A DNA stretch of 64,000 nt from the NCBI GenBank assembly GCA_945862245.1, contig CAMAXN010000008.1, positions 19,256 through 83,255 of the forward strand, given 5' to 3'. This DNA is from Prosthecobacter debontii. Lineage in GTDB: Bacteria; Verrucomicrobiota; Verrucomicrobiia; Verrucomicrobiales; Akkermansiaceae. The notes under the pieces were generated by a model. The model did no database searches. It saw only the letters and a program-made list of their open reading frames with translations, and was not told where the DNA came from. The position numbers were made by a program, and so were the translations under genes. Below are positions 7,261 to 60,582 of the stretch, one piece after another. Positions within the stretch are counted from its first letter, which is position 1. Each line of letters starts with the position of its first letter.

Positions 7261-9027
7261 ATGCCAAAGCCCGCGACACCAAAGGAAATTACCTACTCCG
7301 GCATCCCAGCCTCACCCGGGATTGCGGTGGGGCCGATCCACGTCATCGCCCGTGGCTTTTCCGCGCCGGAAATCTTTGAGATATCCACAGAGGACATCGA
7401 TGCAGAATGTGAGCGTTTTGATGATGCGGTGGCGGTCACCAAAAAGCAGTTGGTAGAGCTTCAACAACGGCTGGATACCCTTTCAGGTAACTCCGACAGC
7501 GAGATCTTCGAGGCACACGTGATGCTGCTAGAGGATAAGAATCTGCTCGAGAAAGTCTCAGCAGCCATCGGCAGCCGACTCCAAAACGCGGAGTATGCAT
7601 TTTATGCGGTAATGCAGAATTTTCTGGAGGCGATGCGCCGCGTTCCAGATCCATACCTGCGCGAACGCACCGCTGACATCGAGGATGTATGCCAGCGGGT
7701 ATTGAGAAATTTCTGGGTCGATTTGGATAACGATCACGAAACCCCAAAAGAAACACATATCCTACTCGCATACGATTTTTCGCCGTCCGACACCGCCTCT
7801 ATGAACCGACGTCACATGCTCGGATTTGCTACAGAGCAGGGAAGCGTAAACTCCCACACGGCGATCCTAGCGCGATCCTTTGGCATTCCTGCGGTGGTAG
7901 GATTGGGAGCTTCGGTCATCCAAGTGACTACTCTCACACCCGCCGTGATCGATGGATACGCGGGAAAACTAATCCTAAACCCAACTCCCGAGACCCTCGC
8001 CGGTTACACGGCGCTGACCGAAGAAAAGGAAAAGCAACGTTCGGAACTCGATGCCAAACGTGGCGAGGCAACAAATACCCTAGATGGTCGCAAGATCACT
8101 CTTTCCGCGAACATTGAGTTCATCGAGGAGCTCAATGAGGTGACGCGCAGCGGGGCGAAAGGTGTGGGGCTTTATCGCACCGAATTCCTACTCCTCAACG
8201 GTAGCGACATGCCCGATGAGGCGGAGCAAACGGAGGCCTACACTAAGGTCGTCTCTGTGGTCGCACCAAATCTCGTGATCGTCCGCACCCTCGACGCGGG
8301 CGGTGACAAGTTGCCTGTCGAGCCGCTTACCGAGCCTGAGCCCAACCCGTTCCTCGGCTGGCGCGGCATCCGCGTTTCCCTTTCCCGCCCGGCGATGTTC
8401 AGGGATCAGCTCCGCGCCATTCTCCGTGCCAGCCATCACGGTAAAATCGCAGTAATGTTCCCGCTCGTCTCTAGCCTCTCCGAACTCCTCCAGGCGCGCG
8501 AGGCGTTGAAACGCTGCATGGATGAGCTCGATACCGAGGGTGTGCCCTTCGATCATAAGCTTCCCGTTGGGGTCATGATCGAAGTTCCCTCCGCCGCCAT
8601 CTGTGCGGATCTACTCGCACCGCACGTTGACTTTTTCTCCATCGGCACCAACGATCTCATTCAATATACCGTCGCCGTGGATCGTGTAAATCCACACGTT
8701 GCGACACTATACAGACCCACCCATCCCGCCGTGATCCGCCTGATTGGTAAAACGGTAGAGGCTGGCTCCGAACATGGGATCTGGACGGGTGTTTGCGGTG
8801 AAATGGCCGGCGACGTACGCCTCACCCCGCTGCTCATTGGCCTTGGTATTGAAGAACTTTCCGTTTCGCCGAAAATCGCCCCCAAGGTCGGCCAAGTGAT
8901 CCGCTCTCTCGATTTTGCACAATGCAAGGACACGGCAAATGAGGCACTGCTTATGAAAGGTTCATCAGCAATCATGGATCTCACCCTCGCGGTCGCGCGG
9001 GAACGCTATCCGGATCTCCTAGATTAA
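7261..9027 (+). CDS. ptsI: Phosphoenolpyruvate-protein phosphotransferase (PTS enzyme I)
   Basis: GIPASPGIAVGPIHV, TEQGSVNSHTAILARSFGIPAVVG (active His), ANIEFIEE, GVGLYRTEFL, FFSIGTNDLIQYT and VCGEMAGD. Start moved to ATG 7261 because the upstream extension crosses a terminator. Confidence 0.93.
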   Translation: MPKPATPKEITYSGIPASPGIAVGPIHVIARGFSAPEIFEISTEDIDAECERFDDAVAVTKKQLVELQQRLDTLSGNSDSEIFEAHVMLLEDKNLLEKVSAAIGSRLQNAEYAFYAVMQNFLEAMRRVPDPYLRERTADIEDVCQRVLRNFWVDLDNDHETPKETHILLAYDFSPSDTASMNRRHMLGFATEQGSVNSHTAILARSFGIPAVVGLGASVIQVTTLTPAVIDGYAGKLILNPTPETLAGYTALTEEKEKQRSELDAKRGEATNTLDGRKITLSANIEFIEELNEVTRSGAKGVGLYRTEFLLLNGSDMPDEAEQTEAYTKVVSVVAPNLVIVRTLDAGGDKLPVEPLTEPEPNPFLGWRGIRVSLSRPAMFRDQLRAILRASHHGKIAVMFPLVSSLSELLQAREALKRCMDELDTEGVPFDHKLPVGVMIEVPSAAICADLLAPHVDFFSIGTNDLIQYTVAVDRVNPHVATLYRPTHPAVIRLIGKTVEAGSEHGIWTGVCGEMAGDVRLTPLLIGLGIEELSVSPKIAPKVGQVIRSLDFAQCKDTANEALLMKGSSAIMDLTLAVARERYPDLLD

Positions 9028-9109
9028 ACGCGCACCAGTGGCCACTTTCGGCTACCAGATAGAAATAGATTAGGCTACTTAGTAGCCAAAGGTAACCCCT
9101 CCTTACTAG

Positions 9110-9283
9110 CTAATCCGCCAGTGACTGCGAGTAGATGTCTTCCCAAGAATTCAGTATAATGATCATCGGCCGGCAGCAGATTTCGCAGTCGTAATCGTAT
9201 TCAGTCGGCATCTCAGATTCATGTGGAACGGCAATCTCAAAGACCTCAAAACAGGTTGGGCAGGTGACGGGGAAAGTGTGCAT
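9110..9283 (-). CDS. CPXCG-motif cysteine-rich small protein (zinc-ribbon-like)
   Basis: 57-aa ORF absent from the supplied track (below its length cut-off): MHTFPVTCPTCFEVFEIAVPHESEMPTEYDYDCEICCRPMIIILNSWEDIYSQSLAD; CPTC...CEICCRP. Confidence 0.75.
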   Translation of the reverse strand: MHTFPVTCPTCFEVFEIAVPHESEMPTEYDYDCEICCRPMIIILNSWEDIYSQSLAD

Positions 9284-9502
9284 GGCGAAGAAATGGGGTT
9301 ATTTAGATTCCAGCAATATATAGCTATTTCGATAAAACTGCCCGGCGATAAACTCAAGGACACCTCTAACCTGTGTGTAGAAAGCATTTTTTTATAAGAC
9401 CTGATCACACTAGTAGACAAAGTCCAGCCTCTCCCCGACATCCGCAGAGAAACCGAACCTTGATCGCTTGGCGGCGAAACGCTAGACCTGCATTAGCAAA
9501 CC

Positions 9503-11284
9503 GTGCAACCGTCGGCCAGCACCCGTTCCATGTTCGGTAATCCCCTCGGCCTCCTTAGCCTGCTCGCCATTCCTGCGATCGTCGCAATCCATTACCTCCA
9601 GCAAAAATCGATCAGGCTGCCGATATCGACGATGTTCCTGTTAGAGCGCACGCAGCGTGAGGCCAACTCCGGTCGTCGCTTTGAGCGGTTGATCCCGTCC
9701 GTCCCACTATGGATGCAAGTTCTCGCTGTGCTGCTCCTCGCGTGGTTACTTTCCGAGCCCCGTTTCAAAAAAGAAAACTCCGTGCAGCGCGTCGCCATAG
9801 TGATAGACGCCTCCGCTTCAATGACTGTTTTCAAAAAGGAGACCGTCGCAGCTCTGAAGAAAATAGTGCCGAAGCTCCGGGGTAGCGCGTCCGCGATGGA
9901 GCTGACCTTGCTGCCTTCCACGCCGGGAGCGGATAGGCTTTACACGGGTACATCGGTGGATGAGCTACTCGCTGCCATCGACAGTTTTAGACCGGACAGC
10001 GGGCTGCTTGATCCTTCTTATTCGCTGCGTCTCGCGCGCTCAATCGTCTCGAAGAATGGTATCGTGATATTTCTCACCGACACCCCCGCAGAGGCACTGC
10101 CTTACGATTCACAGATCATCTCCGTCGGCAGGCCAGTGGGCAATGTCGGCTTCACGGGGATAAGCTTTGCAGAAAATGAAGGAACGCTCACCTGGCAGGC
10201 AATCATCCGTAATTACAGCGAAGAGCCAGTGAAGAGGTCATGGTCGCTAAAAACGAAAACCTCCACCACCGAGGCGCGCGTGTTTGAGATCGGTGCGAAG
10301 TCCTTTGTTACCATTCAGGCGGCTTTCCCCGAAGGTGCGGAAGACGTACGCATCGCGCTTTCACCAGATGATTTTACGCTCGATGACACCATGCCTATGA
10401 TTGCGCCGCGTCCCAAGGTGTTAGAACTTCACACCGCCACCTCCACCGCCTGCCGGGAGCTTACCGACAAGCTCCTTCGCTCTCTCGCCGCCACCCTCCC
10501 GAGCAACGACGCTGCCAGCTGCGACCTCGCAATTACTAGCTACGATCCTCTCGATCCTTCATTGCCGGAAAGTAACGCGATCCTTTTTGTAGAAGACCCC
10601 ACATCAGTCGGAAAATACCTCAAGGGTGGCATCCTCGCCGAGGCGCATCCACTGATGGATGGCATCAACTGGCAATCTCTCCTCGTCCGCGAAACCCTCC
10701 AACTCCCCCGCCAGCCCTCCGACCGCGTATTGCTCTGGCAGGAGAAACGCCCGCTCATTTTCCTCCGTGAGAACAGCGACAAGCGCATCCTCTGCTTCAA
10801 CTTCGACCTCCGCCTGTCCAACACCAGCCAGCAACCCGCCTTCATCGTGTTACTCCATCGCTTCGCGGAAATGATACGCTCAGAAAAAATCGCCTATCAG
10901 GCTCTAAACTTGGAGACCAACCAACCCATCTGCATCGCCACCGCCACCGGCCTGACTATTGAAGCTGCCGCCATCGACGCCTCTGGGAAAAGTATTACCA
11001 CCCCGCCATACGACCGCGCCCCTTCCCTCCCCGGTTTCCTAACAGTTTCTCAGGGCGAGACTCCCCTCCTCCAGGCCGCCATCCACTTCGCAGACACACG
11101 CGAAGCCGATCTGTCCGCCTGCGCGCCCACTGAAACCGAACCCTTCGCCAACATCGCAACCTTCGAACTCCATACCACGCCCGATCCCTTCGCAAGAATC
11201 TGGGTTCTCGCCCTTCTTGCGACCTTAATGGTCGCGTGGCGCTTCACCGCGCCGAAGGAACGGGCGGGTGAGGTGAAGGTATGA
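9503..11284 (+). CDS. BatA/VWA-domain membrane protein
   Basis: FGNPLGLLSLLAIPAIVAIHYLQQKS...LPISTMFLLERTQREANSGRRFERL (BatA N-terminal domain), VIDASASM (VWA MIDAS), C-terminal TM helix. Confidence 0.85.
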   Translation: MQPSASTRSMFGNPLGLLSLLAIPAIVAIHYLQQKSIRLPISTMFLLERTQREANSGRRFERLIPSVPLWMQVLAVLLLAWLLSEPRFKKENSVQRVAIVIDASASMTVFKKETVAALKKIVPKLRGSASAMELTLLPSTPGADRLYTGTSVDELLAAIDSFRPDSGLLDPSYSLRLARSIVSKNGIVIFLTDTPAEALPYDSQIISVGRPVGNVGFTGISFAENEGTLTWQAIIRNYSEEPVKRSWSLKTKTSTTEARVFEIGAKSFVTIQAAFPEGAEDVRIALSPDDFTLDDTMPMIAPRPKVLELHTATSTACRELTDKLLRSLAATLPSNDAASCDLAITSYDPLDPSLPESNAILFVEDPTSVGKYLKGGILAEAHPLMDGINWQSLLVRETLQLPRQPSDRVLLWQEKRPLIFLRENSDKRILCFNFDLRLSNTSQQPAFIVLLHRFAEMIRSEKIAYQALNLETNQPICIATATGLTIEAAAIDASGKSITTPPYDRAPSLPGFLTVSQGETPLLQAAIHFADTREADLSACAPTETEPFANIATFELHTTPDPFARIWVLALLATLMVAWRFTAPKERAGEVKV

Positions 11285-48362: not shown

Positions 48363-48973
48363 TTATGGCGAAAAGCCCGGCAGATACGTGTCTTCGCAGC
48401 AACTTCGCAACCGCCAACCCGCCGCCTGGCCTTGCCAGCGCATCAGCACGTAGAGTAACAGCACGGCCCAGAGCTGCCAGCTGATCGCCTCTTTGCTGTG
48501 GCCGAGGAAGTCGTAAATCTGGAGGGTTTGCTTCAACTGCTTGAAAAACACCTCGATGCCCCACCGCGCCTGATAGAGTTCGCCGACGCTGGAGGCGGCC
48601 CATTGGGTGTTGTTGGTGATGAAAGCCATGACAACTTCCTTGCCGTCAACCTCGACGAGCATTTCCAAGCGTCGGAAGGTTTCGGGATACTGGCCGCGGC
48701 TTTTGTTCGTTTTAAGTAGGATGAGGTCGTTGCGGAGAATTTTCCGGTGGGCTATTTGAGGAGCTTTTTCCTGACGGTGTAGGCCATGTTGTCCCTGGCG
48801 CGGGTGAGCTGGGCGAAGAACCGACTGACGACATGGCTCCACGCGGAAAAGGTGCGCGCCTGTTTATCGATGCCGTGCTTCTTTGCGAGGCTGGCGGTGA
48901 GATGGGAAGAGATCAGCTTGCAAAGCTGGGTGAGGACGGGCAACGCCGCCCTAGCTGGTTTGTGATTAGTCAT
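48363..48973 (-). pseudogene. IS4-family transposase with internal deletion
   Basis: N-terminal piece (48752..48973) LPVLTQLCKLISSHLTASLAKKHGIDKQARTFSAWSHVVSRFFAQLTRARDNMAYTV and C-terminal piece (48363..) VMAFITNNTQWAASSVGELYQARWGIEVFFKQLKQTLQIYDFLGHSKEAISWQLWAVLLLYVLMR in different frames; central catalytic portion missing. Confidence 0.8.
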
Positions 48974-49038: not shown

Positions 49039-50175
49039 TTAGATGCGGTCGCTCTTCTTGCTGTTACACTCACGGCAAAGCAGTTGTATGTTATTCACGG
49101 TATTTCCACCGCCTTTTGCAACGGGGATGATATGATCGAATTCCAGATAAATATTCGAATCGCATTCGACGCAGGCGGCGCCGTCTCTGATCCACACTGC
49201 ATTGCGGACTTCTTTCGAAATGCGGCGGCGTTCTTGGCGGGAATCATCCACGGTGACGCTGGCGGTGCGGTTACTAGCTCGCAGTAAGCAAAGAATGATC
49301 GCGACAGTGGTTTCCGCCTCCGCCATGACAAACTCGCGTCTGCCTTTTGTATCGGTGAGGATAAGTTGCCGACCATGACTTTGGGCTTCTCTGATATTTT
49401 TGAGAGCGATGCTGGCGCCACCCTTTGGTGCGACGTATTCCACGCGTGAATTGGTCACCCAAAAAATCCCTATGGAAACGATTTGTCCTGCAGAGCGTAA
49501 CTCCGCATTTTGTTTCGTGTATACCGCTTCGCCGCTTTGTATCCAAACTGGCTTTATCGTCAGTGCGGGCGGCAGCCGATTCTCACGCAGGTTTGCGAGA
49601 AGCCGGATGCGGGGTATCGTAGTGTTAACCTCTTGCTTGATATCACCGTCGAGGTTGAACAGTTTCACGTTCGCCATAATTGCTTTTTCCTCTTCGGTGG
49701 TTAATTCCCCGTCGGCAATCGCATCGGCGAGTTGGTGGCGGATGAACATCTCGGCGACGGGTTGGCACTCGGCGACGATTTCGTCCCACTTGCCGCCTGC
49801 TTCCGCGACCATTTGGCGTAATGCTTCCAGCTCTGCAGGTTCGAGTTTGCCATCCTCAAGCATGGCGGCGAGTGCTTTAGAAAAGCGGTTTTGCAGGGTG
49901 ACCTTGCGGAAGCATTTTGTGGCAAATCCCGCCAGACTAACTCCAGCTTTGGCGAGGATACCTCCGGCAACCATCGCCGCGCGCATGGTGGGATCGGGTT
50001 GGATTTTTGCGGGTTGTTCGGGGAAAAGTGACTTCACAGGCACCCACTCGACCATACCCTCCTGCCATGCCCATGAGTCTCCGTGCAACGTACCATTGCC
50101 GAGCGCGGCGGCGACATCTGCGAGTGACTCGGCTGAGTAGCGCTGACCATCTGGGTCTTGGAGCATGTAGGTCAT
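49039..50175 (-). CDS. Multidomain protein: GYF_2-like N-terminus, TerB-like helical domain, PH-like domain, C-terminal HNH nuclease
   Basis: DPDGQRYSAESLADVAAALGNGTLHGDSWAWQEGMVEWVPVKSLFP; LEDGKLEPAELEALRQMVAEAGGKWDEIVAECQ...IADGELTTEEEKAIMANVKLF; SGEAVYTKQNAEL...FWVTNSRVEYVAPKGGASIALKNIREAQ; RDGAACVECDSNIYLEFDHIIPVAKGGGNTVNNIQLLCRECNSKKSDRI (HNH). Confidence 0.8.
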   Translation of the reverse strand: MTYMLQDPDGQRYSAESLADVAAALGNGTLHGDSWAWQEGMVEWVPVKSLFPEQPAKIQPDPTMRAAMVAGGILAKAGVSLAGFATKCFRKVTLQNRFSKALAAMLEDGKLEPAELEALRQMVAEAGGKWDEIVAECQPVAEMFIRHQLADAIADGELTTEEEKAIMANVKLFNLDGDIKQEVNTTIPRIRLLANLRENRLPPALTIKPVWIQSGEAVYTKQNAELRSAGQIVSIGIFWVTNSRVEYVAPKGGASIALKNIREAQSHGRQLILTDTKGRREFVMAEAETTVAIILCLLRASNRTASVTVDDSRQERRRISKEVRNAVWIRDGAACVECDSNIYLEFDHIIPVAKGGGNTVNNIQLLCRECNSKKSDRI

Positions 50176-50436
50176 GATTTTAAAAGAATTAATGTGACAC
50201 CTCTCTTATTAGACCCGTGGTGAGGTTCGTCAATGCATCGCTCCGAGTCCGAGTAGGCGGTTGTCTGGTTAATTAATGCGTGGCGGGGGTAGAAGGCCGG
50301 GGACATTAGGTATTGCCAGTTCCCTAAGCCATGAAAATCTTAATGAAAAAGTCCGATGGGTGTAATGGAATGCCCTCCGCAATGGTTCAACACAAAGCCA
50401 CACGGCAAGATAACCGCGATTCTTAGCCCCATATGG

Positions 50437-50509
50437 AGCCGGCTAACGGATTCGAACCGTTGACCTACTGATTACAAATCAGTTGCTCTACCAACTGAGC
50501 TAAGCCGGC
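50437..50509 (-). tRNA. tRNA-Thr (anticodon TGT), encoded CCA at 50434..50436
   Basis: Minus strand: GCCGGCTTAGCTCAGTTGGTAGAGCAACTGATTTGTAATCAGTAGGTCAACGGTTCGAATCCGTTAGCCGGCT(CCA). Confidence 0.95.
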
Positions 50510-50637
50510 CTTGCCTTACAGCAAAGACAGTGAGGGTGTATCTGGCTTGTAGGCGGAAGGCAACGGAAAATCCGGTAGTGTAATGACTTATCCTAGATAT
50601 CCGCCACACCGCTAAGACACGCTTGTGCGTAGTGAAA

Positions 50638-52614
50638 TCAGCTTTCGAAATAAGTATACCCACTGAGCCCGTCGCGATAGAGATCCATGATTTCTTTACG
50701 CTCCTTGGGAGAGATGCGACCGTCGTTCACCGCTTTTTCAGCGAAGCTACGGAATTTGGAGACGAGCTCCTTGGGGTCGAACTCCACGTAGGAGAGGACA
50801 TCCGCCACAGTGTCGCCCTCGACCTCGTGGGTGTAGACCGGTTTACCCTTTTCTAGATGAACACCGACAACGTTGGTGTCACCGAGGAGGTTGTGGAGGT
50901 CACCAAGGGTTTCTTGGTAGGCTCCGACAAGGAATACCCCGAGGTAGTAAGGCTCGTCTGGCTTAAAATCGTGTAGATGCAGGGTTTTCGCGACGTCATC
51001 CTTATCGATGAAACGGTCGATCTTGCCATCACAATCGCAGGTGATGTCGGCAAGAACGGCACGGTGTTTTGGCCGCTCGTCGAGGCGGTGGATGGGCATC
51101 ACAGGGAAGAGCTGATCGATAGCCCAAGAGTCGGGGAGGGATTGGAATAGGGAGAAATTCCCGTAATAAAAATCCGCAAGACCTTGCGAGAGTTCGACAA
51201 GATCCTCGGGCACGTCGTCCATATCGGAGATCAGATTCGATATGCGTGTAAGGATATGCCAATACCATGCCTCGGCGAGGCCGCGCTCGCGAAGGCTGGC
51301 CGCTCCGTAGATGAACATAGCGCGCACTTGGTCGCGATAATAGACAGCGTCGTTGAGGGATTCTTGGAGGTTCTTGCGGCTGAGGGTTTTGTTAACGTGA
51401 AAAAGGTTGATGAGATTCTGTGGGGCTTTTTCCGGCATCACAGGCTCATCGTCAGTAGTCTGCGCAGAGGTCACATCGAGTATATTAAAAACGAGCACTG
51501 AGTAGTAGGAAACCACGGCGCGGCCGGATTCAGAGATGAGGTTCGGGTGTTTCACGCCGACCTTGTCACATTGCTGAGCGATGACCTCGACGATGTCTGT
51601 GCAGTATTCCTGAATTGAGTAGTTACAGGAGGAGGCGAAGTTCGTGTGCGAGCCGTCGTAGTCCACGGCCATGCCGCCACCAATGTCGAGCACACCCATG
51701 GGTGCGCCTTCCTTGACGAGATCACAATACATACGGATGGCCTCCGTCGCGCCCTCGCGGATCGCGGCGATGTTTGGTATCTGGCTGCCTTGGTGATAAT
51801 GGAGCATTTTCAGGCAAGCGAGGTGGCCGGACGCCTTTAGGGAATCGACCACGCCGATGACCTGCGCTGCGTTGAGACCAAAGACGGATTTGTCGCCGGC
51901 GGATTCCTGCCAGTGGCCAGATCCTTTTGTAGAAAGGCGGATGCGGATACCGAGGTTCGGCAACACACCGATGCGGCGGGAGCGCTCAAGGATGAGGTCG
52001 AGCTCGCTGGGCATTTCCAAAACCAGCATGACCTTCAGACCCATTTTCTGAGAGTGCAAGGCAAGGTCTATAAACTCTTCATCCTTGTAGCCGTTACAAA
52101 CGATATATGCCTCGGTGTCGTGCATGTGCGCAAGGGCGGCGATCAGCTCGGGCTTTGATCCAGCCTCGAGGCCATAGTGGTATTGTTTTCCGAATTCGGC
52201 GATCTCCTCGATCACTTGGCGTTGCTGGTTTACCTTGATCGGGTAGACCCCACGGTAATCGCCGGTGTATTTCATGACGCGGATCGCCTCTTGGAAGGAT
52301 TCGTTAATCTCGGTGATACGAGAGTGCAGCAGGTCGCGGAAACGCAGTAGCACAGGCAGGTGGGTGCCGCGGTCGCGCAAACCTTCGATCACGTTGTGAA
52401 GGGAAACATGGGCGTCGCCATATTTGTCGGCGAGTTTTACGGTCACATGGCCGTCATCGTTCACACCGAAGAAATTATGCCCCCACGTATCCACGCTGTA
52501 GAGATCGGCGGATTTCTCGGTGGTCCAAGACAGCCCAGTTTTCGGCTTGGTGATCTTGGCTGGTAGTGTTGCGGCAGGCGGAATCACGCAGGATACTTGC
52601 ACGCGTGTGCACAA
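50638..52614 (-). CDS. speA: Biosynthetic arginine decarboxylase
   Basis: YSVDTWGHNFFGVNDDGHVTV, GVYPIKVNQQRQVIEEI (PLP Lys), GLEAGSKPELIAAL, LDIGGGMAVDYDGS and WAIDQLFPVMPIHRLDE. N-terminal start uncertain. Confidence 0.94.
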   Translation of the reverse strand: MCTRVQVSCVIPPAATLPAKITKPKTGLSWTTEKSADLYSVDTWGHNFFGVNDDGHVTVKLADKYGDAHVSLHNVIEGLRDRGTHLPVLLRFRDLLHSRITEINESFQEAIRVMKYTGDYRGVYPIKVNQQRQVIEEIAEFGKQYHYGLEAGSKPELIAALAHMHDTEAYIVCNGYKDEEFIDLALHSQKMGLKVMLVLEMPSELDLILERSRRIGVLPNLGIRIRLSTKGSGHWQESAGDKSVFGLNAAQVIGVVDSLKASGHLACLKMLHYHQGSQIPNIAAIREGATEAIRMYCDLVKEGAPMGVLDIGGGMAVDYDGSHTNFASSCNYSIQEYCTDIVEVIAQQCDKVGVKHPNLISESGRAVVSYYSVLVFNILDVTSAQTTDDEPVMPEKAPQNLINLFHVNKTLSRKNLQESLNDAVYYRDQVRAMFIYGAASLRERGLAEAWYWHILTRISNLISDMDDVPEDLVELSQGLADFYYGNFSLFQSLPDSWAIDQLFPVMPIHRLDERPKHRAVLADITCDCDGKIDRFIDKDDVAKTLHLHDFKPDEPYYLGVFLVGAYQETLGDLHNLLGDTNVVGVHLEKGKPVYTHEVEGDTVADVLSYVEFDPKELVSKFRSFAEKAVNDGRISPKERKEIMDLYRDGLSGYTYFES

Positions 52615-52843: not shown

Positions 52844-55800
52844 CTAATTTCCGGAAGGCGGTTCGTAGTCGAGTCGGAGAAAAAAACGGTCGCTGGTGGC
52901 GGGAATTTCGAAAATCGCGGAGTCGGCTGGGGATTCGACCTTGAGGTCTTGAAATCCGCTCCATCCCGATTCGAGCGAATCCGTTGTGCGAAGACGATAT
53001 TGGCCAATCGGAACGGCGGGGAATATTTCGATTTCGAGAGCCCCGGCAAGGCGAGCGACGATGCGGCATTCGAGCTTGGAGGTTGGATCGTTAGGATCGG
53101 TGCCAAGGTGAAACTCCGCAAGGTTCGGTGTACCGTCGTGGTCGGGATCGGCGGCAGATTGGGCGTTTGGGTTTTCATCGAAATTTTCTCCGAAATTATC
53201 AAAGAGCCAAGACTGGAAGGCAGTGAATGGCGGCGGGGTCACGGTGACGATCGCGGTTTCGGAGAGCGAATCGCTGGTAGCGATGACGCTGAAATTTTCC
53301 CCGGCCGTCGTGGCGGTGAAGAGTCCGAGCGCATCGATCGTTCCGCCGCCGGAACTGGACCAGACGAAGGCGGCTGGTTGCGTGAACATCTCCTTATTGA
53401 ATTGGTCGACCACCTTGGCGGTGAAAGCCTGGGTGGCGGAAATCGTTAGCGAGGCTGACTCAGGAGTAACCTCAAGTGCAGTGGGGGCAGGAACCACGCG
53501 GACTTTCACTTGGCTCGAGGTCTCGAGTCCGCCGGCGTCTCGAGCTGTAACGGAGAGAGTGTAGTCGCCTAGCCTTTCGAAACTGGCGCTAGAAACCGCT
53601 GATGCGTTCGAGGCATTCGGAAGGAAAAACACGGGCGCTGGTCCGGAAGCCGTCCAGGTATAGACAAGACCCACCTCGCCTGCGTCATCCGTGGCATCAA
53701 CGCTCACATCCACACTGTCGGAACGTACGATTTCATAAATTGTGGTATCCTCGCCAACGGTTTCAGAGATCATTTCTGTTGATGCTGTTTTGGTAGGTAA
53801 AACGATCGTTGGGGGTTGATTAGCGAAGTCTCCGTCACCATTGAGGAGAATGCTGTCGACAAACCAGCCAGAGCTAGCAGTGTTCCCATCGGTCGCCATC
53901 ACCCAGGCGAAGCGCATACTTTTACCGGCGAATTTCGCTGTGTCGATCAGGTTCAAAATACTCTCAATGAATCCCTCGCTGTTGCCGGTCCATGCGGATT
54001 TGTTTTTAAAATCGCTAGGATCAAAGCCTAATTTTATTGTGGCTGTGTAGCCGTTGCTGGCGAAGCTGACACCTGAGGTTGCGGCATCCGTGAACACCCA
54101 TGCTGCGTTATTAATCGAATAAGCCAGGCGCCCGCCATCCCAACGGTTTTCCAGATTGTAACTGTGCCGGAATTTGAGTTGGAGCTTAGTGGCGTTGGCG
54201 GGTATGGAAATGGATGGAGAAGCGAGGTAGGTAGTGGTTTTTCTGGCGGGTGCGGCAATAAAATAGGATTTCGGCGCGGTGTGGGATTGACTCGAGGAAA
54301 GCGACCAACTGTTTGACCCGGTGGTGGCAGTCGAGGTCCAGTCTGTGACAGTGCCATCAAAGTTTTCGCTCCAGATGGCGCCGATCACAGTGAAGGCAGC
54401 GGGAAGCGTGGAGGTAGCATTTGTACTGGCGACTAGTACGCTCCAGAGGCCGGGTTGGGCGTTGGCGAGGTTGAGGTCGGCAAGGAGTTTATCGCCCGAC
54501 ATCCGGAGGTTCGTAGCGACGATTTCGGAAAACGAGTTGCTTACGAGCTTAACGGAGGTGGCTGTGGAGAGCAAAAGGCCTCTGATTTCCAAGGTCGCGG
54601 TGGCTCCCGCAACGGCGCTGGCGGGCGAGATGGATTCCACGGTGAGCGCAGGTGGAGGTGGTTCCTCGGCGGCAGATCCGTCGATCAGCAAAGAGTAGAA
54701 CTGGTCGGCCGAGAGGGTGCCTTGATAGCTGACAACGGCTCGATAGGTACCCGGGACAGACGGTGTGGTGATGATAACCTGTTCGACATTATCCGTGTTG
54801 TTGATGCCGCGGGTCGCAGGCTGGGACATGGATGCAGGGGTCCATAGGCCGACGAAGGGCATCGCCCAAGGCAGATGGGTGGTGCCATCGTTCGTGATGA
54901 TTTTAAGATCGAGATTGTGGCGAAGTCGGACGGCGCGCGAATCGTTTGATGTGGTGGAGGTACCCGCGGGATCGGCCCAGACCAGGGTTGCGCGTATCGG
55001 TGAGACGCCGTCCCACACAAATTCGGTAGTCACGGTCGGTCGGCTTGTGGCGACCTTGTCCTCGGCGAGGCGTTTTTTAATTGGATTTGCGGCGTGGTCG
55101 CGGAGGAGGTCGGCGGCGGCTTTTCCATTGAGCAATCCCCAGCCGAAGGTGTAGTCGGGGCCAGTGTTTCCGCGGTCGTCGGCGGTGTGGAGGAGGAGGG
55201 CTTTGAGGGTGCTGGAGCGCATGTCCGAGCCGGGAAAGAGGCGGCGGTATTCCTCGATGATCTGGGCGGCGGTGCCGGCGGCGTTGGGCGAGGACATGCT
55301 GGTGCCGCTCAGGCTGCCGTAGGCCGAGTTGCTGCCGTTGAGCGCGGAGTAGACCCCGTCGCCGTTGGCCACAAGGTCGGGCTTGATACGGCCGTCGTCG
55401 GTCGGTCCCCAAGAGGAAAACGAGCTGAAATTGGCTTTTAATTGATCACGCAAGCCATTGGTCACTGCATCCGTAACCGATCCGATGGTGATGACATTTT
55501 TTGCCACGGCGTCAAAGCCGATGGTTTCAAATCCGGAGCGATAGATGCCGTCACCTTTGGGGTGGAGGGAACTGTTGTAAGTAACCACGGTGGAGCTTCC
55601 GAGCGAGAGGGCTACAGTCTCTCCGTTAGATGGATTATTGTTGCGATCGTTGCCCGCGCTGCGGAAAATGAGGTAATATGGAAGACTGTAGGCAAGCGAA
55701 TCACTGTCGCGGGCCTGCGTATTGTAGCGGCCGAAGTCAAAATCGTATCCGGTAGCCGTGGTGCCGTCGCCGTTCCACTCCCAGACGCGGGATGGTGTGC

Positions 55801-56605
55801 CGGTACCAACATAGGTCCAGCCTATGAGAAATCCGTAGCTATGGTTCGAGAGAAGAATTTTTCCGGAGTCGCGAGGTAGCGCAGCACCCATTGCGGTCAT
55901 TTCGGTTTTATCGGAGTTCCAATCGTAGGAATCGATCAGCGCGGCGGTGGCCATACCACGAGCGGATGCGACCACTCCGGAAGCAGCAAGCATACCACCG
56001 ATGTGCGTGGCGTGGTCGATCGAGGCCGAACCGTCCTTGACAACGAGACGACCACCGAATTCCTGATGGGTGGCGCGGCCTGATCCGCCGTCCCACATTC
56101 CAATGGTGAGATTGTCGGCAGAGAGGTTGTAGGGGGCGACGCGGAGGAGATTCGAGCCGCTGGAAATGGCAGCGTTGGCGTTGTGGGTGGTGAAGTAGAG
56201 CGGGTTGCCGTGATCGTCGAGACCCGCGATCTCGCGCACGGTGCCGTCGGGAAGTTCGACACGCGTCGGCAGCCCGAGATCGCGGGCGCGGGTGAGACCA
56301 GCGGCACGGCGTGCGATTTCTAGTTCTCTGATTTCGAAGACGGCGCGTTCGCGTTGGGATGGATCGGAAAGGTCGAAGGATTCTAGGATATCGGCAATTG
56401 AGCGCTGGGGCGGCGGCGGCGCGGCGGCGGGAATCGCGGACGGTGCGGACGGGGAAGGCGAACCGGAGATCGACGCCGGCGAAGCCGTTGTAGATTGATC
56501 CGGTGGAGCCGGAACAGCATCCTGAGTCTTGTAAATTACGAGAAGCACTGCAGTAAAGGCCGACAGCAGGACTACCCCGATGACGACGTACTTACCCCAA
56601 TGCAT
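52844..56605 (-). CDS. Secreted subtilisin-like (S8) serine protease with C-terminal Ig-like/beta-sandwich region
   Basis: N-terminal TM/signal; LTIGMWDGGSGRATHQEFGG (Asp), SIDHATHIGGMLAASGV (His), SAGNDRNNN, FSSWGPTDDGRIKPDLVANGDGVYSAL, LSGTSMSSPNAAGTAAQIIEEY (Ser); Ig-like modules toward C-terminus. Confidence 0.9.
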   Translation of the reverse strand: MHWGKYVVIGVVLLSAFTAVLLVIYKTQDAVPAPPDQSTTASPASISGSPSPSAPSAIPAAAPPPPQRSIADILESFDLSDPSQRERAVFEIRELEIARRAAGLTRARDLGLPTRVELPDGTVREIAGLDDHGNPLYFTTHNANAAISSGSNLLRVAPYNLSADNLTIGMWDGGSGRATHQEFGGRLVVKDGSASIDHATHIGGMLAASGVVASARGMATAALIDSYDWNSDKTEMTAMGAALPRDSGKILLSNHSYGFLIGWTYVGTGTPSRVWEWNGDGTTATGYDFDFGRYNTQARDSDSLAYSLPYYLIFRSAGNDRNNNPSNGETVALSLGSSTVVTYNSSLHPKGDGIYRSGFETIGFDAVAKNVITIGSVTDAVTNGLRDQLKANFSSFSSWGPTDDGRIKPDLVANGDGVYSALNGSNSAYGSLSGTSMSSPNAAGTAAQIIEEYRRLFPGSDMRSSTLKALLLHTADDRGNTGPDYTFGWGLLNGKAAADLLRDHAANPIKKRLAEDKVATSRPTVTTEFVWDGVSPIRATLVWADPAGTSTTSNDSRAVRLRHNLDLKIITNDGTTHLPWAMPFVGLWTPASMSQPATRGINNTDNVEQVIITTPSVPGTYRAVVSYQGTLSADQFYSLLIDGSAAEEPPPPALTVESISPASAVAGATATLEIRGLLLSTATSVKLVSNSFSEIVATNLRMSGDKLLADLNLANAQPGLWSVLVASTNATSTLPAAFTVIGAIWSENFDGTVTDWTSTATTGSNSWSLSSSQSHTAPKSYFIAAPARKTTTYLASPSISIPANATKLQLKFRHSYNLENRWDGGRLAYSINNAAWVFTDAATSGVSFASNGYTATIKLGFDPSDFKNKSAWTGNSEGFIESILNLIDTAKFAGKSMRFAWVMATDGNTASSGWFVDSILLNGDGDFANQPPTIVLPTKTASTEMISETVGEDTTIYEIVRSDSVDVSVDATDDAGEVGLVYTWTASGPAPVFFLPNASNASAVSSASFERLGDYTLSVTARDAGGLETSSQVKVRVVPAPTALEVTPESASLTISATQAFTAKVVDQFNKEMFTQPAAFVWSSSGGGTIDALGLFTATTAGENFSVIATSDSLSETAIVTVTPPPFTAFQSWLFDNFGENFDENPNAQSAADPDHDGTPNLAEFHLGTDPNDPTSKLECRIVARLAGALEIEIFPAVPIGQYRLRTTDSLESGWSGFQDLKVESPADSAIFEIPATSDRFFLRLDYEPPSGN

Positions 56606-56704
56606 GATCGAATAATATTTAGCACATTCATGTGACTTGCGCAACGAGAAAAGTTGTGAAGGAAGTCATCCCAGCCGTGTTCAACGAGCTGCCAAAGTGG
56701 CGTG

Positions 56705-59300: not shown

Positions 59301-60362
59301 TCAGGAAGCACCTGATCCCGTTTTCCGGTAAACAAGCCACCGCAATTCGATCGGCGACGCCTCCCGTGGAACGTCAAAAACATCCAGCCCGCTCACCCAG
59401 CTCTCATACCAGCTAGTCGGCGGCCAGGCGGTCGCGGGTAGATGGGCCTTCTCGTATTCGTGGACGGAGTCGTCAGAGACGAGCACGAGAGGCAGTCCCG
59501 CGGCTGCAACCGCGATCTCTTCCCGGGTAAAGATCGCCGAGTAACATTGCTGTGAAAGCTCCCGGGCGGCGACGTCTGGTGTGTAGCCTTCGCTGGCCAG
59601 GAACGTGTTCAAAACAAGCACCCCACCGATAGCGAGGCGCTCGGCAGCCAGCATGAATACAGCGCGGAACTGATCGATGTTGCGAAAGTCGGAGACCACT
59701 TCCGAAAGCAAAATCAGCCTGTAATCCCGACGAAGATCCTGGGAAGAGGAGAAGACGTCGCGCTGAATCACCCGCACGGCAAGCGATTCCCGTTCGACTT
59801 CTCCGCGGATCATGCCGGCAAACTTGGGTGCCAATTCCACTGCGTCGACTGAGTGTCCGCGCCTTGCCAACGGCAGCGAATTGCGGCCCGTGCCCGCGCC
59901 GACGTCGAGTATCGGGAAGTCGGCCGAATTGTTTACCTCGGCAACTAACGCCATCACCCGGGCATCCGGTTCAGTGCCAAAATACGGTGGATGGCGGGTG
60001 GCCACCCAATGATCATAGGCAGACTCGAGGCTCGCCCACTGAGCCTTGACGTGATAGTTCACCGTCAGGCCCACTGGCGAATCGTAGGTGATCACAATCT
60101 CCGACCGTGGGGAGGCTGCGTAGGCGGCGGCGAGCTGCCCCTCCAGTACCACGCGCAGGTGGCTGAGCTGATCGTCATTGAACGGCACGCCGACCCCCAT
60201 GAACACGCGTGCGCACATTTCCACATAGTCGTCGATCATGGCGGGCACGGCTGGCAGCACGATGGAACCGCTGGCAACCGTACGTCGATGAAGTCGACGA
60301 AGCATGCCCGGTCGCAATGCCGGGTCAAGCGGTAGAATAGTTACGTCTCCTTTTGGGTTCAT
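59301..60362 (-). CDS. SAM-dependent class I methyltransferase
   Basis: FPILDVGAGTGRNSLPLARRGHSVDAVELAPKFAGMI (motif I), DYRLILLSEVVSDFRNIDQFRAVFMLAAERLAIGGVLVLNTF. Start assumed at Met 60362 (MNPKGDVTIL); the ORF extends to 60431. Confidence 0.8.
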   Translation of the reverse strand: MNPKGDVTILPLDPALRPGMLRRLHRRTVASGSIVLPAVPAMIDDYVEMCARVFMGVGVPFNDDQLSHLRVVLEGQLAAAYAASPRSEIVITYDSPVGLTVNYHVKAQWASLESAYDHWVATRHPPYFGTEPDARVMALVAEVNNSADFPILDVGAGTGRNSLPLARRGHSVDAVELAPKFAGMIRGEVERESLAVRVIQRDVFSSSQDLRRDYRLILLSEVVSDFRNIDQFRAVFMLAAERLAIGGVLVLNTFLASEGYTPDVAARELSQQCYSAIFTREEIAVAAAGLPLVLVSDDSVHEYEKAHLPATAWPPTSWYESWVSGLDVFDVPREASPIELRWLVYRKTGSGAS

Positions 60363-60582
60363 TGGCACGGGGCAAAGTCTCGGCAGCACAAAATCGACTT
60401 TTTCTCCGCACGTCGAGATAACAATGCCCATCCTCGCCCCGCTCCCGGAGACGGGAGCCTCTTTTTTAGCCTCTTCATCGAGAGTTAAATTTGAACATTC
60501 AAGCCCACGTAGGAATCTCCAGCTGGAACTCCGGGATCCTCGCGAAGACCCAATCGCACACCCCGATCCTGCCTAAGCACAC

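What the first reader, a model, noticed from the sequence alone, without database searches (positions are those of the whole stretch)
49039..50175. Four-module GYF-like / TerB-like / PH-like / HNH nuclease protein in an accessory patch beside tRNA-Thr
One ORF seems to fuse a GYF_2-like sensing module, a TerB-like acidic helical domain, a PH-like beta domain and a C-terminal HNH motif (CxxC...LEFDHIIP...GGGNTVNNIQLLCRECN). TerB domains and HNH nucleases each occur in stress-response and phage-defence proteins, so the fusion looks like a single-protein sensor-effector. It sits between an IS4 remnant and tRNA-Thr(TGT), a typical acquired-gene location. Domain calls are by eye; the defence role is inference.
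Basis: partly seen in the sequence, partly recalled or inferred. Interest (0 to 1): 0.75.

Follow-up and report, generated by a model that had tools for sequence, protein, structure and literature searches.

The report
Sensor-fused HNH nuclease, Ter-related
A freshwater Verrucomicrobia genome carries a rare protein that joins a peptide-binding (GYF) domain, a TerB-like helical domain, a PH-like domain and an intact HNH DNA-cutting domain; its last three parts are shared, in the same order, with Deinococcus tellurium-resistance (Ter) proteins, so it is most likely a stress- or invasion-triggered nuclease, although its function is untested.

Summary
The ORF is real: minus strand, 378 aa, under purifying selection, with six full-length relatives (53-74% identity where computed) in freshwater Akkermansiaceae-like genomes. 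All four modules hold up with unequal strength. HNH: Pfam 7e-13, zinc and DH residues invariant. GYF_2: 7e-5, slightly under Pfam's cut-off, GYF folds recovered. PH: fold matches. TerB: weakest on its own, but residues 79-378 align end to end with Deinococcus proteins that are TerD-Zn ribbon-TerB-PH-HNH, one of them inside a ter operon. A distant relative has a Zn ribbon in place of GYF. The stable unit is therefore TerB-PH-HNH with an exchangeable N-terminal sensor.

The gene is accessory: 6 of 73 genus genomes, mostly without shared synteny; three copies lie just downstream of three different tRNAs. Neighbours are housekeeping genes; I found no defence genes or integrase, so the specific phage-defence claim is unproven. 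In the genus, carriers and TerD carriers overlap more than expected (3 of 6 versus 2 of 67, p = 0.003, not corrected for ancestry), although the loci are unlinked.

Best reading: a Ter-linked sensor-gated HNH nuclease, a new variant of a known kind.

The parts
49039..50175 (-). 378-aa protein gene, GYF_2-linker-TerB-like-PH-like-HNH (P0001)
50020..50175 (-). GYF_2-like domain, residues 1-52, with conserved W37-x2-G40-x3-W44
   Evidence: Pfam GYF_2 6.6e-5, just under the cut-off; GYF folds by Foldseek; conserved in the relatives
49906..50019 (-). Ala/Gly/Lys-rich linker, residues 53-90, partly helical, low confidence; no stretch as hydrophobic as a transmembrane helix
49576..49905 (-). TerB-like helical domain, residues about 91-200, with conserved acidic DG...E and D...EE motifs
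   Evidence: alignment to the Deinococcus TerB region, which hits Pfam TerB at 1.4e-4; own direct hits weak
49276..49539 (-). PH-like beta domain with C-terminal helix, residues about 213-300
   Evidence: seven strands plus helix, pLDDT 84-92; PH-fold matches
49042..49224 (-). HNH nuclease domain, residues about 318-378; zinc cysteines 335, 338, 367, 370 and D347-H348, N362, N371
   Evidence: Pfam HNH 7.2e-13, HNH_5 6e-12; residues invariant in eight sequences including Deinococcus
50434..50509 (-). tRNA-Thr(TGT), upstream of the gene in the same direction
48363..48842 (-). truncated IS4-type (DDE_Tnp_1) transposase remnant downstream

Best explanation
The gene encodes a sensor-gated HNH DNA endonuclease that belongs to the wider Ter (tellurium-resistance-type) stress-response world. 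The core is TerB-PH-HNH; the N-terminal module is exchangeable (GYF here, TerD plus Zn ribbon in Deinococcus, Zn ribbon in G537). Proposed mechanism: in unstressed cells the TerB and PH modules hold the protein at a sub-membrane or protein scaffold and keep the HNH domain inactive. The GYF domain docks on a proline-rich partner, and a stress or invasion signal sensed by TerB or relayed by that partner releases the C-terminal HNH domain to cut DNA. Shown here: architecture, intact catalytic residues, purifying selection, homology to Ter-operon proteins, accessory distribution. Inferred: DNA as substrate, autoinhibition, partner, signal, and whether the outcome is defence against mobile DNA or a DNA-processing step of a stress response.
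For: HNH residues are invariant across window, relatives and Deinococcus. Residues 79-378 align with D. radiophilus and D. radiodurans TerD-family proteins (E = 3e-25 and 4e-21, 30% identity), which score for TerD, TerB and HNH in Pfam. The D. radiophilus gene stands directly before TerD, VWA, TerD, TerD and DUF475 genes and beside ATP-grasp, PRTase-domain, HAD, StiP and aldolase genes, the layout described for Ter systems in PMC7824862. Genus-wide, TerD is in 3 of 6 carriers and 2 of 67 non-carriers, and those TerD loci read as TerC-TerD-VWA-PP2C-kinase-TerY where the contig is long enough. A TerB-containing three-gene system, Shango, blocks phage (PMC10250203). The gene is under purifying selection.
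Against: The gene is not next to any ter or defence gene in the Akkermansiaceae-like genomes checked. G015, G017, G712, G256 and G537 carry the protein without a detectable TerD. The co-occurrence test ignores ancestry, and G000 and G008 look close by arginine decarboxylase. TerB is weak by direct search. There is no substrate or membrane evidence; no transmembrane-like stretch was found.
Confidence: 0.5

Rival explanations
1. Stand-alone single-protein anti-phage system: GYF/TerB/PH sense infection and HNH destroys phage or host DNA, with no partner proteins.
For: Accessory gene, solitary, at different sites in different genomes; three copies beside tRNAs; PADLOC candidate PDC-S48 matches the TerB-like part weakly, E = 2e-4; HNH effectors are common in defence (own knowledge).
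Against: No defence-island neighbours; no full-length PADLOC model; neighbours housekeeping; no phage challenge data.
Confidence: 0.22
2. A DNA-processing or repair nuclease of a general stress response (metal, oxidative or radiation damage), not aimed at foreign DNA.
For: The closest relatives outside the phylum are in D. radiodurans and D. radiophilus, radiation-resistant bacteria, one in a ter operon with biosynthetic genes.
Against: Very patchy distribution (6 of 73), unusual for repair; no repair genes nearby; the D. radiodurans copy is not in an obvious repair cluster.
Confidence: 0.18
3. A selfish or homing-type HNH element, or cargo of small elements that insert at tRNA 3' ends.
For: Three of eight copies start 190-335 bp downstream of three different tRNAs; one (G256) is flanked by a diverged 30/38 copy of the tRNA 3' end.
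Against: No integrase seen nearby by eye; no att-like repeat at the window or G001 copies; the N-terminal three domains are conserved under purifying selection, unlike simple homing endonucleases; no viral contig carries it.
Confidence: 0.08

Closest known systems
Deinococcus TerD-family proteins WP_162177623.1 (D. radiodurans) and WP_126352148.1 (D. radiophilus)
   Same: TerB, PH-like and HNH regions in the same order and spacing, 30% identity over 300 residues, same catalytic and zinc residues
   Different: N-terminus is TerD plus a Zn-ribbon-like segment instead of GYF; the D. radiophilus gene lies in a ter operon, this one is solitary
Ter-dependent stress response systems (TerB/C/D/F, TerY-P triad; Anantharaman et al. 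2012, cited in PMC10250203 and PMC7641849; original not readable here)
   Same: TerB-like module; the host genome has a TerC-TerD locus elsewhere
   Different: no ter gene adjacent; no TerD domain in the protein
Shango (TerB-like protein, ATPase, helicase) anti-phage system, PMC10250203
   Same: a TerB-like domain, there in a defence setting
   Different: three genes; no HNH, PH or GYF mentioned in the passages read
Ltp-family lipoprotein WP_181718255.1 of Psychrobacter plasmid pA18BP2
   Same: matches the PH-HNH half, residues 233-378, 28% identity
   Different: no match to the GYF or TerB part; on a mobilizable plasmid

Membership tests
HNH endonuclease (PF01844) | HNH motif with catalytic DH and zinc cysteines, score over cut-off | tested here: met
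   48.9 bits against 21.4; residues invariant
HNH endonuclease (PF01844) | metal-dependent DNA cleavage | not testable with these tools
   needs purified protein
GYF_2 domain (PF14237) | score over Pfam cut-off | tested here: not met
   23.0 bits against 25.8; 17-24 bits in relatives
GYF_2 domain (PF14237) | GYF fold | tested here: met
   GIGYF2 and GltJ GYF domains, Foldseek probability 0.98-1.00 though E 0.1-0.2
TerB domain (PF05099) | direct significant profile match | tested here: not met
   no TerB hit for the window protein; E = 0.056 for G001
TerB domain (PF05099) | homology to proteins that match TerB | tested here: met
   aligned Deinococcus region matches TerB at 1.4e-4, slightly under the cut-off; best PDB profile hit is tellurite-resistance protein 2ou3, E = 0.08
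TerB domain (PF05099) | TerB fold | tested here: inconclusive
   helical bundle predicted; 2ou3 and 2h5n only at E > 1
PH-like domain | seven-strand barrel capped by a C-terminal helix | tested here: met
   (for example 4tyz, TM by target 0.62; CARMIL PH)
Ter system | operon with TerC/TerD/VWA genes | tested here: not met
   window neighbours are not ter genes; the TerD locus is on another contig
Anti-phage defence system | defence-gene neighbourhood | tested here: not met
Anti-phage defence system | protection against phage | not testable with these tools
   needs an experiment

The most novel reading that the evidence does not exclude
TerB-PH-HNH is the nuclease arm of Ter systems with interchangeable sensors (TerD, Zn ribbon, GYF); the GYF form is a trans-acting effector that works with an unlinked TerC-TerD-TerY-P locus as an anti-invader system.
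Probability: 0.2. Interest if true: 0.75.

Novelty: new variant of a known kind. Interest (0 to 1): 0.45.

Why it matters
Ter genes are widespread, yet what they do in nature is unsettled; PMC10250203 notes that they were hypothesised to be anti-phage. A compact nuclease with the same TerB-PH-HNH core as a Deinococcus ter-operon protein, but separated from the operon, offers an easily tested effector. If active, it would show how a Ter signal could be turned into DNA cleavage and that the sensor part is modular.

Tried and rejected
Defence-island reading: neighbours of the window copy and of four others scanned with PADLOC and Pfam, no convincing defence gene. Weak PADLOC hits to IetS/subtilase (an S8 protease), mad2 (a methyltransferase), LmuA and C3a186 (a Rossmann oxidoreductase) look like generic domain matches. 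Viral origin: two viral-contig scans found nothing and a phage tblastn found only the HNH part. att sites: no repeat of the tRNA 3' end at the window or G001 copies; one in G256. Transmembrane linker: maximum hydropathy is 1.6 and it falls in the PH helix, so rejected. Literature for the D. radiodurans gene under my guessed tag DR_A0057: nothing relevant seen. The 2012 Ter survey is not held, so I could not check whether it already lists this architecture. The first genome-contig scan with the single protein found nothing.

Full report
Observation. The minus strand of 49039-50175 is a single 378-codon frame starting with ATG and ending with a stop; the plus strand is interrupted. It is not a chance ORF. 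Full-length relatives exist in G008 (74% identity), G001 (58%), G015 (55%) and G017 (53%), in G712 and in another genus of the family, G256 (54%). Synonymous differences greatly exceed non-synonymous ones (window/G008 pS 0.73, pN 0.14; G256/G712 0.68, 0.15). Record titles of the same contigs label the hosts Prosthecobacter, Luteolibacter and Akkermansia MAGs, so the source is an Akkermansiaceae-like Verrucomicrobia MAG, probably freshwater; the genus itself was not named by the tools.

Modules. HNH is secure: PF01844 at 7.2e-13 and HNH_5 at 6e-12, with the four zinc cysteines, D347-H348, N362 and N371 invariant in eight sequences. GYF_2 scores 6.6e-5, a little below Pfam's cut-off, and the predicted fold recovers GYF structures including the GltJ GYF domain. 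The PH-like domain is not seen by Pfam, but the model has seven strands and a helix at pLDDT 84-92 and Foldseek returns PH folds. TerB is the weakest by direct tests: DUF533 at 0.05, 2ou3 tellurite-resistance protein at 0.08 as the best PDB profile hit, and the structures 2ou3 and 2h5n only at E > 1.

The key relative. A tblastn search of plasmid records found Deinococcus radiophilus and D. radiodurans proteins aligned with residues 79-378 at 30% identity, E = 3e-25 and 4e-21. These proteins score as TerD, TerB (1.4e-4 in D. radiodurans, 0.009 in D. radiophilus) and HNH, and they carry a Zn-ribbon-like pair of CxxC between TerD and TerB. The D. radiophilus gene stands at the head of a run of TerD, VWA, TerD, TerD and DUF475 genes, with ATP-grasp, PRTase-domain, HAD, AIM24, StiP and aldolase genes divergently beside it. 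This matches the description of Ter systems as signal-making PRTase/HAD enzymes plus TerB/TerD ligand sensors, TerC and TerF (PMC7824862). The D. radiodurans gene is not beside other ter genes. A third form, G537, has a Zn-ribbon-like N-terminus followed by TerB-PH-HNH. So the stable unit is TerB-PH-HNH, and the first module is swapped.

Distribution and context. In the genus 6 of 73 genomes have the TerB-PH part, and in a phylum-wide sample only five of 388 have any match, of which three (own, G256, G537) carry the HNH core. Neighbouring genes differ between most genomes and read as housekeeping: MiaB-like, glycogen-synthase-like, glutamate-synthase-like, Sua5, class-III aminotransferase, ornithine-cyclodeaminase-like; only G015 and G017 share the upstream side. 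PADLOC finds no convincing defence neighbour. In ten relatives DNA similarity to the window ends at the arginine decarboxylase stop codon, 50638. In five relatives checked, tRNA-Thr(TGT), with about 65 bp upstream in four of them, lies elsewhere, and similarity stops at or near the tRNA 3' end. The arrangement in the window is therefore lineage-specific. Three of eight copies lie 190-335 bp downstream of a co-oriented tRNA, and the three tRNAs differ (Thr, Ala, Val; none near the other five). A rough binomial estimate with an assumed tRNA density gives p about 4e-4, but it was computed after the pattern was seen. Only the G256 copy has an att-like repeat (30 of 38 bases). No integrase was seen.

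Link to Ter genes inside the genus. TerD (PF02342) occurs in 5 of 73 genomes, three of which (G000, G001, G008) also carry this gene; Fisher p = 0.003. G000's TerD genes are on another contig. The G001 locus reads TerC, TerD x3, two VWA, PP2C, kinase, VWA-TerY_C, and G008, G703 and G707 show matching stretches; G000's contig ends inside the third TerD. The test ignores ancestry: G000 and G008 look close by arginine decarboxylase (94%), so perhaps only two independent coincidences exist, and five carriers lack TerD. I treat it as suggestive.

Mechanism. Most likely a sensor-gated HNH nuclease with a TerB-PH-HNH core. The nuclease activity, the gating and the signal are inferred. Whether the result is phage defence, plasmid exclusion or stress-related DNA processing cannot be decided from sequence. 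A TerB-containing system (Shango) protects against phage (PMC10250203), which makes defence plausible, not shown.

Novelty. The individual domains and the TerD-TerB-PH-HNH relatives are sequences already on record. I found no held paper that describes a GYF-TerB-PH-HNH protein, but the main Ter survey was not readable. I rate it a new variant of a known kind.

Noticed in passing
G015:C162 (L048 4590-5729) against G017:C14 (L029 10001-11140): The two genes differ by about 3% up to codon 300 and then by 18% across the linker and HNH tail, and their downstream flanks are unrelated. This suggests exchange of the HNH end by recombination between copies, or a chimeric assembly.
   Followed up: partly
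L047 (G256) 8600-10243: The gene lies between tRNA-Val and a diverged 30/38 copy of that tRNA's 3' end, like an att-flanked single-gene insert.
   Followed up: partly
window 50577-50638: Lineage-specific junction: arginine decarboxylase is joined to tRNA-Thr(TGT) only here; in five relatives the tRNA follows a different gene.
   Followed up: yes
G001:C2 (L075), G703 (L077), G707 (L078), G000:C32 (L074): Rare Ter loci of the genus: TerC, TerD genes, VWA proteins, PP2C, kinase, TerY-C protein; TerD in 5 of 73 genomes.
   Followed up: partly
L052 1406-3070 (Psychrobacter plasmid pA18BP2): A plasmid 'Ltp family lipoprotein' matches the PH-HNH half and lies beside a PH-domain gene and mobilization genes.
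   Followed up: no
window 52844-56644: 1266-aa S8 protease with an InhA-like MAM region and weak PADLOC subtilase/IetS matches; probably a secreted protease.
   Followed up: no
window 59301-60431: Methyltransferase-domain protein with weak TehB and PADLOC mad2 similarity.
   Followed up: no
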